64,000 bases of DNA from a virus: the IMG/VR virus record IMGVR_UViG_3300006077_000002, positions 1-64,000 of that record; one strand, written 5' to 3'. The position numbers were made by a program, and so were the translations under genes. Of this stretch, positions 898-59,397 are shown in pieces (positions within the stretch are counted from its first letter, which is position 1; each line of letters starts with the position of its first letter). Under the pieces are notes generated by a model. That model did no database searches. It was not told the origin of the DNA and saw nothing but the letters and a program-made list of their open reading frames with translations.

Positions 898-1704
898 ATG
901 AAGACAATAGATTTCATAAGTGATATCCATGCAGACTTCTACAATCTTAAGACGAAACCTAAGATAGAGAAGTTTGTATTAGATAAACTAAAGCCTAAAG
1001 GTTCAAGCACTTTGATAATTGCTGGTGACTTAGGGCATTACAACAAGATGGACTTGGCAGTCCTTAAGGAACTTCGTAACTACTACGAGCATATTGTATT
1101 GGTATGTGGGAACCATGACCGTTACCTAGTAAGTAAATCTCAGCAATCTAAGTATGAATATAAAAGTCAGGCTAGAGTAGATGACATGAAAAAACTTTGT
1201 GCAGCAGAGACAGGTATCTATTACTTAGATGGAGGAGTTATAGATATAGAAGGAACTACAATTGCTGGTGTTGGCTATTGGTATGACTCACCAATTGACC
1301 AATGGCGTAAGGAGATGAATGATTCAAGACTTATTATGGAGTGTGTACCTTATTATGTACCACAAGTATATGGAGAGTCAATAGTAGAGACAGGGTTCAA
1401 TACCAAAGAACATTATTTAAAGGAGAAAGAAAAGCTCAAGGGCTTACCTAAAACTAATGTATTGGTTTCACATATATGCCCAACACTACTAGACCTATAC
1501 CAAATGCCACAGCAATATCACGATGACCCCAACAATGTATTTTTCCAGAACACAGATGGTGGCTTAGTTAAAGCTCCACTATGTATCTTTGGACATACTC
1601 ACGACATCTATGATTTTGAGGACCAAGGTACAAGATATGTGGCTAACCCATTGGGGTATCCATCAGAAAGTAAAGGAAGAGAAATAAGGAGTATAGACAT
1701 ATGA
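898..1704 (+). CDS. Calcineurin-like metallophosphoesterase
   Basis: 268 residues starting at an ATG with GAGGAG eight bases upstream. The metallophosphoesterase motifs occur in order: SDIHAD near residues 8-13, AGDLGHYN near 41-48, CGNHDRY near 70-76, VSHICPT near 189-195 and GHTHD near 231-235. All dimetal ligands appear present. The family hydrolyses phosphomono- or diesters, including nucleic acids and cyclic nucleotides, and the substrate here cannot be read from sequence. Its last codons overlap the reverse transcriptase start (ATGA), implying translational coupling. It is a candidate partner or effector of the RT/RNA system. It is not one of the SbcD-like or 414-aa phosphoesterases found elsewhere in the window. 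Confidence 0.9.
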   Translation: MKTIDFISDIHADFYNLKTKPKIEKFVLDKLKPKGSSTLIIAGDLGHYNKMDLAVLKELRNYYEHIVLVCGNHDRYLVSKSQQSKYEYKSQARVDDMKKLCAAETGIYYLDGGVIDIEGTTIAGVGYWYDSPIDQWRKEMNDSRLIMECVPYYVPQVYGESIVETGFNTKEHYLKEKEKLKGLPKTNVLVSHICPTLLDLYQMPQQYHDDPNNVFFQNTDGGLVKAPLCIFGHTHDIYDFEDQGTRYVANPLGYPSESKGREIRSIDI

Positions 1705-2426
1705 CATACAAAGAATACCTAATCCCCAAGAAAGGTGGAAAATTCAGAAAGATTGTAGCTCCAGATGCTGAACTTAAACAAGCATTAAGAGCAGAATTAC
1801 CAGACCTCAATAAGTATTTTGAAAAGTACTCAAAGATGTTTGGAGTACGTAACCAGATACATGGGTTTGTTCATAAACGAAATGTAAAGTCTGCAGCTAA
1901 AGAGCACATAGGTTATCCTCATACAATTATGATGGACATATCAGCGTTCTTTGATACTGTAACACGAGAAGATATCCCCTATTCGCTTAGGAAAGATATT
2001 ATGTTTCATAAAGAAGGATATACACCGCAAGGATTTCCAACAAGCCCAGTGCTTGCAAATATTGCAGTGGTACCAATTATGTCAAAGATTAAAAGAAACC
2101 TAAACCAAGTAATAGGTAAAGGACAATATGCAATAACTATTTATGCGGATGACATTCAAGTGTCTATCAAAACCAAAGAAGTTATTGCCTCAGTTATAGA
2201 TGTAGTCACCAAAGAATTTACCGATGGTGGCTTTAGCATCAACAAAAGAAAGACCAGAGTTAGACATGCTCAGTATGGGTATCGTAGAATTTTAGGTATC
2301 AATGTAGGAGATAAAGTTCTTCAGCCAACACGTAAGACCTTAAGAAAACTTAGGGCTGCAAAGCACCAGAAGAACTCTAATTCTGCAGGTGGTCTTGCCT
2401 CATGGGCTAGTCACATAACAAAGTAA
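1701..2426 (+). CDS. Retron-like reverse transcriptase
   Basis: 241 residues. The RT blocks are visible in order: GGKFRKIVAP (12-21), HGFVHKRNVKSAA (54-66), MMDISAFFD with catalytic Asp79 (77-85), TPQGFPTSPVLANI (108-121), IYADDI with the catalytic Asp pair 150-151, GGFSINKRKT, then ILGINV and a basic thumb-like end. The PQG..TSP..SN-like block and the LGI-V turn resemble retron RTs, which usually exceed 300 residues, so this is a compact member. No maturase, endonuclease or primase domain is fused. It overlaps the phosphoesterase by 4 bases and its stop codon lies inside the first stem of a three-unit structured RNA array. A diversity-generating or abortive-infection RT is a less likely alternative. 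Confidence 0.92.
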   Translation: MTYKEYLIPKKGGKFRKIVAPDAELKQALRAELPDLNKYFEKYSKMFGVRNQIHGFVHKRNVKSAAKEHIGYPHTIMMDISAFFDTVTREDIPYSLRKDIMFHKEGYTPQGFPTSPVLANIAVVPIMSKIKRNLNQVIGKGQYAITIYADDIQVSIKTKEVIASVIDVVTKEFTDGGFSINKRKTRVRHAQYGYRRILGINVGDKVLQPTRKTLRKLRAAKHQKNSNSAGGLASWASHITK

Positions 2427-2824: not shown

Positions 2825-3028
2825 ACATATCTATACCATAGTAGCTACGAGCTACACGAATAGGGCAGGGAGGCGTATCGCCCCTGTTAACTAACGTCTT
2901 ATTCACTATTAGCTCATCGCCTTCACTAGCATCTACGGCGATGAGCTAATTGCATCCAGGGACCCAGCTGCTGCAGCTGGTTACCAGAACAGGATATAAT
3001 AAAAGTGCTATGGTATAGCTATGTCCAC
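2821..3028 (+). ncRNA. RT-associated structured RNA, unit 3
   Basis: The closing stem is the longest: 2821-2841 pairs with 3008-3028 at 20 of 21 positions. A 6 bp hairpin, GTAGCT-ACG-AGCTAC, follows. GAATAGG (2858-2864) pairs with CTTATTC (2898-2904), with a G-U wobble where unit 2 has A-U. The core is at 2868-2887. The long hairpin is a perfect 14 bp, 2908-2921 with 2937-2950, with a 15-base loop. CCAGGGACC is at 2956-2964, and CCAGCTG (2964-2970) pairs with CAGCTGG (2974-2980). The 3' closing arm contains the ATG at 3021 of the next gene. Confidence 0.8.
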
Positions 3029-13249: not shown

Positions 13250-14164
13250 ATGTACCAACAAGCAATAGAGGCTTACTTAAAATCCCAGCACATTTCCTAT
13301 AAGGTACAGGGGGAGCAGATAGTATGCCGATGTCTTAACCCAAAGCATATTGATAGTAACCCAAGCTTCCAATTTAATACGGAAGAAGGATACTGTCATT
13401 GCTTTAGTTGTGGTTGGAAGAGTCACATATCTCGTATGGCAGACATTGAGATAGATGAGGATACCCTTAGGGCTTATGACTATGACAAGCTTATCGAACA
13501 ACTTAAGTTAGATAGTCATGAGATATCAGACGAGAACGTGGTACTACCACCAAAAGCATTTGATATTGTATGGCCTGTCCGTCATATTGGTGCTGAGATT
13601 ATGCGAGATTTAGGAGTGTACTATTGTGAAAAGGGACGTTTCAGAGGAAGACTTATTTTTCCTATTACTAATGTTGACGGCGTGTTGCTTGGTTATACAT
13701 CTTGGGTGGCAACCGCTGCAGCCTTAGGAGAATTTAAGGATAGATTAGTGGATGCTGTGAGACCAGATGCAAAATATCTGCATAGTTATAAGATGAACAC
13801 CAGTAACTTACTGTACCCAACACAGTGCTCTGATATGGACCTCAAGCATGAACAAGGACTACATCTAACCGAGGGGTTGTTTGATGCCCTCTCCCTCATA
13901 CAACTAGGCTACCCCGCTGTCTGTAATTTTGGACTGGGGGCACCATCTATTAACAAAGTTGGTGAGATGCTTAGTATGGGGTACGAAGTTCTAGTACCTG
14001 CCTTTGATAATGATAAAGCAGGAATGGAAGGATGGCAAAAGATACGAGATGATTGGGCAGAACATGTAACTATTTCTGCACCCACACAGATTCTAAGAGA
14101 TATACGAGAGTATGGCTCAAAAGATGCAAATGAATACTTAACAAAAAGGTTAACACATGATTAA
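13250..14164 (+). CDS. DNA primase (zinc finger plus TOPRIM)
   Basis: 304 residues starting one base after the helicase stop, with GGAGG upstream. The N-terminus carries a CHC2-type zinc ribbon: VCRC...PKHIDSNPSF...YCHCFSCGW. The TOPRIM region shows HLTEGLFDALSL with the catalytic Glu and VPAFDNDKAGMEGW with the DxD-like pair. This is a compact primase of the T4 gp61 / T7 gp4-N type. It overlaps the next gene by 8 bases. Confidence 0.9.
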   Translation: MYQQAIEAYLKSQHISYKVQGEQIVCRCLNPKHIDSNPSFQFNTEEGYCHCFSCGWKSHISRMADIEIDEDTLRAYDYDKLIEQLKLDSHEISDENVVLPPKAFDIVWPVRHIGAEIMRDLGVYYCEKGRFRGRLIFPITNVDGVLLGYTSWVATAAALGEFKDRLVDAVRPDAKYLHSYKMNTSNLLYPTQCSDMDLKHEQGLHLTEGLFDALSLIQLGYPAVCNFGLGAPSINKVGEMLSMGYEVLVPAFDNDKAGMEGWQKIRDDWAEHVTISAPTQILRDIREYGSKDANEYLTKRLTHD

Positions 14165-14864
14165 AAAATTAAATGAATATGGGGTGAGTTTTGGCTCACG
14201 TAGATGGGGAGGTTGGGTAGAAGACTCAGACTACGACCGCATTATTAGTATGCCAGAGTATCAAGATATGATTGCATACAGAGATGTCCGTCCAAAGAGA
14301 GACCATCAATATGATTCAAACGGAGTACTAGGAAATAGCTTTCACATTTACATAGGTGAAGACGGAAAGACTTATAACTTCTTAGTATACACAAATAAAG
14401 TGAGGTATGAGATAGCTTTAAAATGTACCAATGATTTGGATGCAGTTATGCTGACTCCAATAGGAGCTATAGTTAATACAAGTAAAAGTTTTAGATATAA
14501 GATAGTGGAGGGAATATTTAAAGGGGCTCATAAACTGTACTTTGGCAGAACCTCCACTCCATTATCAGATTTATATGAGGAAGTTACTATGGATACAATA
14601 CTAACGTCAACACCAGCCAAAGATAAAAGAGCACAAGCATCTTATACCAGAGACAGTAGACGTAACCCATTTACTGTTAGAGGAACTGCAATGAGTCAAG
14701 ATGAGATTCAACCTGTTTATGCTCAAGCAGTTGAAGACAGGAATGAAAGAGTACCAACTGCTACATGGCAACAGCTAGATGGAACTGCTGTTAGTAGAGC
14801 AGATACCATACAACCTCAAGAATTCCTAAGGGCAGATACTACTGACCAGTCAGTAAGCTGGTAA
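14157..14864 (+). CDS. Hypothetical protein, 235 aa
   Basis: Directly coupled to the primase stop. The N-terminal 140 residues look like a compact alpha/beta domain (DDSDYDRIISMPEYQDM-like helix, then alternating strands). The C-terminal 90 residues are low-complexity, Thr/Ala/Gln-rich and probably disordered. Its place in the replication operon suggests a DNA metabolism role, but no motif supports a specific function. Confidence 0.6.
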   Translation: MIKKLNEYGVSFGSRRWGGWVEDSDYDRIISMPEYQDMIAYRDVRPKRDHQYDSNGVLGNSFHIYIGEDGKTYNFLVYTNKVRYEIALKCTNDLDAVMLTPIGAIVNTSKSFRYKIVEGIFKGAHKLYFGRTSTPLSDLYEEVTMDTILTSTPAKDKRAQASYTRDSRRNPFTVRGTAMSQDEIQPVYAQAVEDRNERVPTATWQQLDGTAVSRADTIQPQEFLRADTTDQSVSW

Positions 14865-50464: not shown

Positions 50465-50484
50465 GGTAGGCCCGAAGGCTTACC
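50465..50484 (-). terminator. UUCG-type hairpin downstream of the tail tube gene
   Basis: On the leftward transcript GGTAAGCC-TTCG-GGCCTACC forms an 8 bp stem (one G-U) closed by the extra-stable UUCG tetraloop, with a further CTTA/TAAG pairing outside. It lies between the tail tube stop (50491) and the chaperone start (50425). It probably trims or partially terminates transcription so that the abundant tube protein is made in excess. Confidence 0.6.
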
Positions 50485-50490
50485 TATAAG

Positions 50491-51645
50491 TTATACTGTT
50501 GGGAAGTAAACTGTAATTGTACGCTCGTTACCAACACAGTCAGGTGACTCAGCTTCAAAAGAAACCTCGTCGTATAAGATACCTGCATCATCAGTACGAG
50601 TTACTGTTACAAATTTCATTTGTGGAATATAAACACCACAAAGGATAGGAGCACCAGCATTACCGTCACGAAGTTCTAAACTGAACTCTCCACGGACAGA
50701 GTTAAGAAGAGCATCAAAATTTGTTGTACCAACGTACTCAGTTTTGAATGTTCCACTTACAACTTTTTCTGTACCAACTTTGTTAGTGATACCATCAGTT
50801 GTAATACTAAGGATATCAGTGTTAGTTGTAGCAACATCTACTGCCAAGTCTTGAGCCGTATAAGGAACTCCAAGAATTGTAACAACAGCATTCTTACCAA
50901 TTACTGGAGTAAGAATATCACAGTCAAGGTTAATTGCTGGTGCTGGAGTAGTTGTTCCAGAACCTGCACCTGCAACTGAGAAGTCAGCAGTAGCAATACC
51001 ACCAACTGGGAAAGCCAGTGCAGCAGTCTCAATCATACAACCACGATAGTCATAATCAATGTTATCGCCAGCAGTAGGCTTTAGGTGCTCACGGATAAGA
51101 AGTGATTTTACTTCAGTATCTGGGCGAGGCAAGATGAATGAAAGAACACCACTTGCTGATTCTCCACCTGTAGGAACTGCAGAAAGTGCTGGAGTTACAA
51201 CCAAGTCGTTAGTAGAAACTGAAACAACTTGTACATACTCTTTAGCACCACCAACAGTTACCTCAAGCATCTGACCACCAACGATACCAGTAGCATCAGT
51301 TAGTGTAAAGTTACTACCATCAACAGCACTTGCGATAGTTGTTGCAGTTGTGCTTGGAAGCTCAACACCAATACCATTTTTGTATAGGAGTTCAGCGTTA
51401 AGTACACCACCTACTAGACCTGAAATCTCAGTAGTAATATTTCCTGAGCTAGTTTCTTGTCCAGCAATAGATGCTAGTTTAACGAGTGAGTTACGAATAA
51501 CTGAGCGTTCAATTTGTTCGATATCAATCGAAATATCTCCAGCTGTGTAATCAAAATAGTCTGCGTCTGTAATGACGGTTGCTGGGTCTGCGTATGTTGC
51601 CTCTTCTTGAGCGGCGAGGCTTCGGCCTTTAGTTAAGAAAGCTAT
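50491..51645 (-). CDS. Major tail tube protein, ATA start
   Basis: 384 residues if started at the ATA codon at 51645-51643, which follows AAAGGA at six bases. The N-terminus then reads (M)AFLTKGRSLAAQEEATYAD, a normal tube-protein start. The frame is open up to a stop at 51712-51714 with no ATG, GTG or TTG before an internal ATG at 51270, which would remove 125 residues including conserved sequence. Beta-rich protein with GGVLNAELLYKNG and a C-terminal domain. Gene order (between tail terminator and chaperone) supports the major tail protein. Confidence 0.75.
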   Translation of the reverse strand: MAFLTKGRSLAAQEEATYADPATVITDADYFDYTAGDISIDIEQIERSVIRNSLVKLASIAGQETSSGNITTEISGLVGGVLNAELLYKNGIGVELPSTTATTIASAVDGSNFTLTDATGIVGGQMLEVTVGGAKEYVQVVSVSTNDLVVTPALSAVPTGGESASGVLSFILPRPDTEVKSLLIREHLKPTAGDNIDYDYRGCMIETAALAFPVGGIATADFSVAGAGSGTTTPAPAINLDCDILTPVIGKNAVVTILGVPYTAQDLAVDVATTNTDILSITTDGITNKVGTEKVVSGTFKTEYVGTTNFDALLNSVRGEFSLELRDGNAGAPILCGVYIPQMKFVTVTRTDDAGILYDEVSFEAESPDCVGNERTITVYFPTV

Positions 51646-51691
51646 GATAAGTCCTTTAAGTTTATATTGGGGATGGGTAGGCCCTAAGGCA

Positions 51692-52117
51692 TCAGGTACA
51701 TGGGTCCATTTTTACACGGACTTCAAGTACGATTGTGGCTCCACGTACGGGTGCCATCTCAGCATGGTCATAGTTAACAGATACAATATCTCTATCAACT
51801 ATATATTTCCAAATTTTGTTGTCATTTAAGATAGATGACTCAAGAGAGTCTACAATATCCATAAGAACTAAATTATCTTCACCAACATTGGCAGCAACAT
51901 AGACACTAAATAACATAGTTCTTAGGTATCCAGCCCTGCCAGCAGAGTTTGAGTCAAGTGTAAATACAACTGTCTCAAGGGTAACATCTACTGCAAGGTC
52001 TTCAGTAAGTTCTGAAAGTGGAGTAATATCATTCACAGTTACTTTAGGTTGTTGTGAGCTTGCCGAAATTAATTGGGAAAGCTCTTCAATAATTTGTCTA
52101 GTAAGTTGTGTACTCAT
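51692..52117 (-). CDS. Tail terminator / completion protein, 141 aa
   Basis: 141 residues between the head-tail connector block and the tail tube gene. The layout begins with a helix (QLTRQIIEELSQLISASS) and continues with alternating strands such as DVTLETVVFTLDSN and GATIVLEVRVKMD, typical of gpU-type tail terminators. It overlaps the preceding gene by 4 bases. Confidence 0.6.
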   Translation of the reverse strand: MSTQLTRQIIEELSQLISASSQQPKVTVNDITPLSELTEDLAVDVTLETVVFTLDSNSAGRAGYLRTMLFSVYVAANVGEDNLVLMDIVDSLESSILNDNKIWKYIVDRDIVSVNYDHAEMAPVRGATIVLEVRVKMDPCT

Positions 52118-53227: not shown

Positions 53228-54460
53228 TTAGATACGGTTTACGTTGATTCCAACAACAATGTTCTTGCGAGTTGCGTCGATTGCAGTAGGGTTACTGTCA
53301 AGACGGTCGAAGCGAGAGTTGAAGCCAGCACGTACACTACCAGTAGTGATGATGTGTTGGTTTACAATGTTACGGTCAATTTCCATAAGTGGTGTACCAG
53401 TTGCGTAGTAAACACAAGTCTCACGGTTAACCATTACGATTGAACTGAAGTCATCAGCAGTTCCACCAACTACACCAGTTGCATCAACTTGTGGTAGGTA
53501 CGGAGTCATAACAACAGGAATGTTGAATACAGAGTCTACTGGAGAACCAAATAGAGTTGCTGCACCAGCTGCTTTGTCACGAGTCAAGAATGCTGGAAGC
53601 ATACGTAACTGGTTATAAGAGTTTTGGTCAACAAGAATAACTACGTTACCCATTGATACTTCAAGGTCGTCTAGATAAACGCCACCAGCCTCTTGCATTG
53701 CAGAGATGTTTTTCAACCAATCTTCTTGAGCCAATGCTGCACCACCAAAGTCTACAGTTTGCTTGCCAAGTCCTAGTTTACGAAGACCTTTGAAAGCTTT
53801 CTTGTAAGAGTTAGCTGCAACACCTGCATCCATATGAGTAGCTGTATCGTCACCATTGATTACTGCTTGTTCGATTGCACGAGCAAGAGCGTCAACGATA
53901 CCGTTACGTACTTCAGTTGCAAGGTCAATCAATGCATCATCAAGAGCTTCGTATGATTTACGAACAACAGCCATACACTTGCTTACTAGGTAAATCATAG
54001 TGATGTAGCTTTCTGCCGAGTCAGTTCCGTCAGTAGCTTCGTTAGTTAAGAAACCTTCGATACCATGAACGGCAATTGAATCGTACTGACCTGGAGAAGT
54101 TTGCTTGAACGGGAACAATGCAGTAACAACTAGGCGAGACTGGATGTCTTGCCATAGTGTTCCAGTGAATCCACTTGGTAATAGTTCAGCGATATCAGTT
54201 GTTACACCAACAGCTTTGATACGAGAGTTAAGAGCATCAGATTCTACTTTAAGTAGAGGTGCTCCACCACGGATTGTTTTGATAATCAAACCAAGTTCAG
54301 CAGCACGTTGTGCATCAGCAGGAGCACCTTTAAGTGCAGTTGTAAGTGCGTCAGCAGGAGCTGATACAGCAGGGTTAGATGCAAGCTCTGCACCAGCAGA
54401 ATCAATCTCAGTTTTCATAGACTTAATAGCGTCAGCTACTAATGATTTAAGTTTAGACAT
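53228..54460 (-). CDS. Major capsid protein (HK97 fold)
   Basis: 410 residues. The first about 70 residues are helical and Ala-rich, resembling an HK97 delta/scaffold domain. The capsid body shows HK97-type features: LPSGFTGTLWQDIQSRL (N-arm/E-loop start), SYITMIYLVSKCMAVVRKSYEALDD (spine helix), VVILVDQNSYNQLRML and FSSIVMVNRETC (P-domain strands). The downstream UUCG hairpin and the upstream protease/portal order support it. Confidence 0.9.
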   Translation of the reverse strand: MSKLKSLVADAIKSMKTEIDSAGAELASNPAVSAPADALTTALKGAPADAQRAAELGLIIKTIRGGAPLLKVESDALNSRIKAVGVTTDIAELLPSGFTGTLWQDIQSRLVVTALFPFKQTSPGQYDSIAVHGIEGFLTNEATDGTDSAESYITMIYLVSKCMAVVRKSYEALDDALIDLATEVRNGIVDALARAIEQAVINGDDTATHMDAGVAANSYKKAFKGLRKLGLGKQTVDFGGAALAQEDWLKNISAMQEAGGVYLDDLEVSMGNVVILVDQNSYNQLRMLPAFLTRDKAAGAATLFGSPVDSVFNIPVVMTPYLPQVDATGVVGGTADDFSSIVMVNRETCVYYATGTPLMEIDRNIVNQHIITTGSVRAGFNSRFDRLDSNPTAIDATRKNIVVGINVNRI

Positions 54461-58999: not shown

Positions 59000-59019
59000 T
59001 CTGTATAAATTAAGGAGAT

Positions 59020-59397
59020 ATGATGGAATTATCAGAGACAATTAGAGTTAAGTACGCTTCAGGGCTGTACTCAAATACAGAATTGGTGCTAGAATACAGC
59101 CCTTTGGTTGGTGCTATGAAGGTACTGGAGATATTAAACTATGCGGTGGATAAAGATGTGCGTCCTGACCTACAAGGTATCATTGAGGACATGCCTAAAG
59201 TGCATACGATAACCTCTTTATACCATCGAGAGCTTCGTGAGAGTCATACACAGATTGAAGGAACCACTGAGACAACTGCTTGGAAAGACCGTGAGTTTGC
59301 AATTGATAAGCGTAGGTTAGACTTTAAGCTACGAGAAGAGTTGAGAGCGTATCCTTGGGTAACCCCAGATGTCTTGTCAAAGCTATATCATGACTAA
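59020..59397 (+). CDS. Hypothetical protein, 125 aa
   Basis: First gene after promoter P3, with AAGGAG. Two ATGs stand in tandem (59020, 59023); the second has better spacing. Helical and charged, with a C-terminal basic region (DREFAIDKRRLDFKLREELRAY). No domain was recognised. Its stop overlaps the next ATG. Confidence 0.6.
   Translation: MMELSETIRVKYASGLYSNTELVLEYSPLVGAMKVLEILNYAVDKDVRPDLQGIIEDMPKVHTITSLYHRELRESHTQIEGTTETTAWKDREFAIDKRRLDFKLREELRAYPWVTPDVLSKLYHD

What the first reader, a model, noticed from the sequence alone, without database searches (positions are those of the whole stretch)
51643..51660. Major tail tube gene appears to start at ATA
On the - strand the 384-residue frame carries AAAGGA followed by ATA at 51645-51643. 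From there the product reads (M)AFLTKGRSLAAQEE, a normal tail tube N-terminus. No ATG/GTG/TTG occurs in the 125 codons before ATG 51270. With the nrdA and MazG-like cases, this suggests repeated use of ATT/ATA starts in this phage, for one of its most abundant proteins.
Basis: partly seen in the sequence, partly recalled or inferred. Interest (0 to 1): 0.6.

Follow-up and report, generated by a model that had tools for sequence, protein, structure and literature searches.

The report
Phage tail tube gene starting at ATA
In a small group of uncultured phages, the gene for the main tail tube protein almost certainly begins at the rare start codon ATA instead of ATG, and the same choice is conserved in a second phage, so this is a real use of a weak start codon and not a sequencing slip.

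Summary
In the - strand frame of the tail tube gene (stop-to-stop 406 codons) there is no ATG/GTG/TTG until residue 126. AAAGGA (51657-51652), a 6-nt spacer and ATA (51645-51643) stand exactly where a start belongs. The decisive evidence is comparative. A relative at 72% protein identity (G001, another metagenome) has the same AAAGGA-N6-ATA, with an in-frame stop 14 codons upstream. A second relative (G002, 62%) has ATG at the same alignment column. Protein-level constraint begins at the codon after ATA and is absent before it. A second gene shows the reverse swap: ATA in G002, ATG in G000 and G001. In the window, nrdA (ATT 3688) is well supported. The MazG-like case is ambiguous, because an in-frame ATG lies upstream. 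AUA is read as Ile internally, and the tube gene has no internal ATA among 28 Ile codons. No tRNA gene and no initiation-factor gene was found in the 93.8-kb record. Most likely mechanism: ordinary fMet-tRNA initiation at AUA, helped by a strong SD at optimal spacing, as in S. aureus infC/ccpN/citZ. Efficiency, first residue and regulatory purpose are inferred. New member of a known kind.

The parts
51643..51645 (-). ATA start codon of the tail tube gene
   Evidence: same codon at the same place in G001, ATG in G002
51652..51657 (-). Shine-Dalgarno AAAGGA, 6-nt spacer CTTATC to ATA
   Evidence: AAAGGA also conserved in G001 and G002; spacing 5-6 is modal for ATG starts in this genome
50491..51645 (-). 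Tail tube protein CDS, 384 residues from ATA, stop 50493-50491
   Evidence: PF18906, PHROG 290; 72% and 62% identical relatives
51646..51691 (-). Leader between the upstream gene's stop and the ATA; includes most of the minimal frame ATG CCT TAG (51692-51684) that overlaps the upstream TGA
   Evidence: fold predicted
51692..52117 (-). Upstream gene, 141 residues, conserved in both relatives (47% and 45%)
53228..54460 (-). Major capsid protein, ATG start; shares the avoidance of internal ATA
   Evidence: PF05065; 0 ATA of 28 Ile codons
3688..5460 (+). nrdA-like ribonucleotide reductase large subunit with ATT start behind TAAGGAG
   Evidence: the KZY1 homologue's annotated start aligns within one residue
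3051..3053 (+). Candidate ATA start of the MazG-like gene (AAAGGAG, 6 nt); alternative ATG at 3021
   Evidence: undecided
59017..59397 (+). Homologue of the G002 gene that starts at ATA; here it starts at ATG

Best explanation
The tail tube protein is translated from the AUA at 51645-51643. The ribosome is positioned by the AAAGGA SD six bases upstream, and the ordinary host initiator fMet-tRNA(CAU) pairs with AUA through a third-position C-A mismatch, so the protein begins fMet-Ala-Phe-Leu-Thr-Lys. Shown by sequence: SD, spacing, lack of any other start, conservation, onset of protein constraint. Inferred: Met as first residue, reduced efficiency relative to AUG, and the host's tolerance of AUN starts. 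Why this group keeps AUA at a gene whose codon usage looks highly expressed is not known. The simplest view is that strong SD contexts make AUA good enough, or tune the tube-to-capsid ratio, so AUG and AUA can swap over evolution.
For: AAAGGA-N6-ATA in G000 and G001, ATG at the same column in G002. In G001 an in-frame TAA 14 codons upstream, no ATG/GTG/TTG/CTG before ATA, and a first GTG only at residue 24. G000 versus G001: codons before ATA 3 same, 0 synonymous, 11 nonsynonymous; after ATA 9, 4, 3. G000 versus G002: 1, 0, 13 before and 4, 8, 4 after. Pfam tube model matches from residue 9 (profile position 5). Second gene with the reverse swap, ATA in G002 and ATG in G000 and G001. nrdA ATT. 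ATA avoided inside the tube gene (0 of 28 Ile; genome 24%, chance about 0.0005). AUA aligns with Ile, not Met, inside genes (83 I, 4 M). Precedent: S. aureus infC, ccpN and citZ start at AUA, infC and ccpN noted with extended SD, reporters at about 10-30% of AUG (PMC13009471).
Against: No protein or ribosome data. AUA is a weak start in E. coli (established knowledge), odd for an abundant structural protein. Only two relatives were found, both metagenome contigs. The AlphaFold model was too poor to test the N-terminus (mean pLDDT 35).
Confidence: 0.88

Rival explanations
1. Sequencing or assembly error, or a minority variant: the true codon is ATG.
For: One transition separates ATA from ATG, and G002 has ATG at the same column.
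Against: The same ATA stands in G001, a different metagenome at 72% protein identity. A second gene shows ATA in a third assembly, and nrdA has ATT with a full SD.
Confidence: 0.04
2. Initiation at the preceding ATC (51648-51646) or another upstream near-cognate codon.
For: ATC directly precedes ATA in both G000 and G001.
Against: ATC lies only 3 nt from AAAGGA while ATG starts here mostly use 5-7. ATA, not ATC, aligns with G002's ATG. Residues before ATA are not conserved.
Confidence: 0.05
3. The tube is made as a fusion with the upstream gene, by frameshift or by ribosome hopping over the leader, so no start codon is needed.
For: In G000 the tube frame is open back to 51711 and overlaps the end of the upstream gene; tiny ATG-X-stop frames stand in the leader of G000 and G001.
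Against: In G001 an in-frame TAA separates the two and the leader frames are not equivalent. G002 has a plain ATG after a stop. The SD is conserved.
Confidence: 0.02
4. Truncated start at ATG 51270.
For: It is the first standard start codon.
Against: It would remove 125 residues conserved in three phages and part of the Pfam tube domain, and there is no clear SD before it.
Confidence: 0.01

Closest known systems
Staphylococcus aureus infC, ccpN and citZ AUA starts (PMC13009471)
   Same: AUA start directed by a strong SD, conserved across relatives in ccpN
   Different: Regulators, a translation factor and a metabolic enzyme; here a phage structural gene, and relatives swap AUA for AUG
E. coli infC and pcnB AUU starts (pcnB is in the reference list of PMC13009471; infC from general knowledge)
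   Same: AUN start that lowers initiation and is sensitive to IF3; like the nrdA ATT here
   Different: No sign here of autoregulation or of an initiation factor as the product
Phage_tube_2 tail tube proteins (PF18906)
   Same: The protein belongs to this family by profile match
   Different: Its gene starts with ATA

Membership tests
Phage tail tube proteins, PF18906 | Profile match above the curated cut-off | tested here: met
   30.3 bits against cut-off 27, E 4e-7
Phage tail tube proteins, PF18906 | Position between head genes and tape measure | tested here: met
   Terminase, portal, protease, capsid, four small genes, tube, two genes, tape measure-like PF10145
Phage tail tube proteins, PF18906 | Tube protein fold | tested here: inconclusive
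   AlphaFold model with mean pLDDT 35
Natural AUN (non-NUG) start codons | No usable NUG start in the conserved frame | tested here: met
   G000 first at residue 126, G001 first at residue 24 inside conserved sequence
Natural AUN (non-NUG) start codons | Strong SD at proper spacing | tested here: met
   AAAGGA, 6 nt, in both
Natural AUN (non-NUG) start codons | Conservation of the codon in relatives | tested here: met
   ATA in one of two relatives, ATG in the other
Natural AUN (non-NUG) start codons | Experimental initiation at the codon and lower yield than AUG | not testable with these tools
   Needs N-terminal peptides or reporters
Altered genetic code (AUA = Met) | Internal AUA aligned with Met | tested here: not met
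   83 Ile, 4 Met

The most novel reading that the evidence does not exclude
These phages, or their unknown host, have a relaxed or infection-regulated start codon discrimination (for example IF3 becoming limiting late in infection), and AUN starts on nrdA, tail tube and other genes are a timing or dosage device, not drift.
Probability: 0.12. Interest if true: 0.75.

Novelty: new member of a known kind. Interest (0 to 1): 0.5.

Why it matters
Gene callers that accept only ATG/GTG/TTG would cut this tail tube protein to its last 259 residues. If abundant virion proteins can be made from AUA, start-codon rules used for phage annotation are too narrow, and the AUG/AUA swap among close relatives offers a natural experiment on how strong SD contexts offset weak start codons.

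Tried and rejected
Searches for more relatives with the tube protein, its alignment, the capsid protein, its alignment, the terminase and a DNA pattern in IMG/VR gave only the same two contigs. Tube or capsid searches of GTDB genomes, and tube searches of GenBank phages and plasmids, gave no relative. tRNA genes: none. Pfam scan of most other genes of the record listed no initiation factor or lysidine synthetase; two minor families were not listed, and ORFs under 80 codons, a few very long ones and two that cross locus borders were not scanned. AlphaFold with three sequences failed. PDB search of the alignment: none. Folding gave moderate exposure of the SD-start region in all cases and does not separate ATA from ATG sites. 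Literature searches found no paper on an AUA-started phage structural gene in the open library held here, which does not prove absence.

Full report
The observation. On the minus strand the sequence reads AAAGGA CTTATC ATA GCT TTC TTA ACT AAA GGC, with ATA at 51645-51643. The frame is open for 406 codons to the stop at 50493-50491, and the first ATG/GTG/TTG is ATG 51270, residue 126. In a genome-wide codon-score scan this gene stands out: the coding signal before its first standard start was 39 log units, the largest of 142 genes called in the three phages; the next were 11.4 and 6.7 (the latter is the G001 tube gene), and nearly all others were below 4. The protein is a tail tube protein by Pfam (PF18906, residues 9-334) and lies between capsid and tape measure genes.

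Context. The window is the first 64,000 bases of a 93,817-base IMG/VR virus record. Two relatives exist in IMG/VR: G001 (24.8 kb, tube 72% identical, capsid 87%) and G002 (43.6 kb, tube 62%, capsid 83%). None was found in GenBank phages or plasmids with the tube query, or in GTDB genomes with the tube and capsid queries.

The decisive comparison. G001 has AAAGGA TCCATC ATA TCT TAC TTA ACT AAA GGC, with an in-frame TAA 14 codons before ATA and no standard start or CTG in between. G002 has AAAGGA ACCTT ATG GCA TAC TTA ACT. Thus the ATA is shared by two phages from different samples and is replaced by ATG in a third, at the same alignment column. Before ATA the G000 and G001 codons share little but the SD and one ATC (3 same, 0 synonymous, 11 nonsynonymous). 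From the next codon on the protein is conserved (9 same, 4 synonymous, 3 nonsynonymous); against G002 the counts after the start are 4, 8, 4. Constraint on the protein therefore begins at this codon. A sequencing error is very unlikely, and a fusion with the upstream gene is blocked by a stop in G001.

More cases. A scan for SD plus 5-7 nt leading into a frame of 60 or more codons outside called gene bodies and without a nearby standard start found, at exactly 6 nt, only ATA, three times: the two tube genes and G002 11597 (minus strand). Three other phages (150 kb) gave no ATA under the same scan. The G002 gene is homologous to a gene that starts at ATG in G000 (near 59017) and G001, so here the swap runs the other way. 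In the window nrdA starts at ATT 3688 behind TAAGGAG; the first standard start would remove part of the ribonucleotide reductase N-terminal domain, and the annotated start of the phage KZY1 homologue aligns within one residue. The MazG-like gene (PHROG 715) has ATA 3051 behind AAAGGAG but also an in-frame ATG at 3021 without an SD, and is undecided. A 76-codon frame at 89789 of the record starts best at ATC behind AAAGGAG, without homology support.

Mechanism. AUA keeps its Ile meaning inside genes (83 Ile, 4 Met in aligned positions), so the code is standard. No tRNA gene was found in the record, and no initiation factor or lysidine synthetase was listed by Pfam among the genes scanned. Ordinary initiation by fMet-tRNA at a weak codon, supported by a strong SD, is therefore the simplest account. 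It has direct precedent: S. aureus infC, ccpN and citZ start at AUA and cvfC1 at AUU; the sites of ccpN, citZ and cvfC1 gave about 10% of AUG expression in reporters in poor medium, up to 30% for ccpN in rich medium (PMC13009471). What is unusual is the gene. The tube gene avoids ATA entirely among its 28 internal Ile codons, as does the capsid gene, against 24% in the genome, which suggests adaptation for high expression. Whether AUA lowers tube output on purpose, is IF3-sensitive, or is nearly neutral behind this SD cannot be told from sequence; the ATA/ATG swaps favour near-neutrality or mild tuning (inference).

Verdict. Observation confirmed, interpretation supported, mechanism known in kind. 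Interest is moderate: a conserved AUA start on a major virion gene is uncommon and easily missed by annotation, but not a new principle.

Noticed in passing
L005:1604-2830 (+), record position 81604-82830: Phage-encoded glutamyl-tRNA synthetase-like protein, 409 residues (PF00749 E 4e-53; best NCBIfam TIGR00464 gltX 268 bits, below its cut-off 290). Relatives in the phage collection are under 60% identity, the listed ones about 28-34%.
   Followed up: partly
window 1701-2426 (+): Reverse transcriptase (PF00078, E 8e-21) with best NCBIfam similarity to the retron St85 family, well below cut-off; could be a phage-borne retron or other RT system.
   Followed up: partly
window 50465-50484 (-): Inverted repeat GGTAAGCCTTCGGGCCTACC just after the tube gene; the leader before the tube gene holds the similar GCCTTAGGGCCTACC. 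Possible mRNA end or processing signals around an abundant transcript.
   Followed up: no
L005:9789-10016 (+), record 89789-90016: 76-codon frame whose best start is ATC behind AAAGGAG; another possible AUN start.
   Followed up: partly
G002 (L012) 11597-11217 (-): Gene starting at ATA behind AAAGGA with a TATAAT-like box close upstream; its homologues in G000 and G001 start at ATG.
   Followed up: yes
G002 record 13471-14678 (+): The portal gene is split into two adjacent frames in G002 relative to G000 and G001; an assembly frameshift or an insertion not examined.
   Followed up: no
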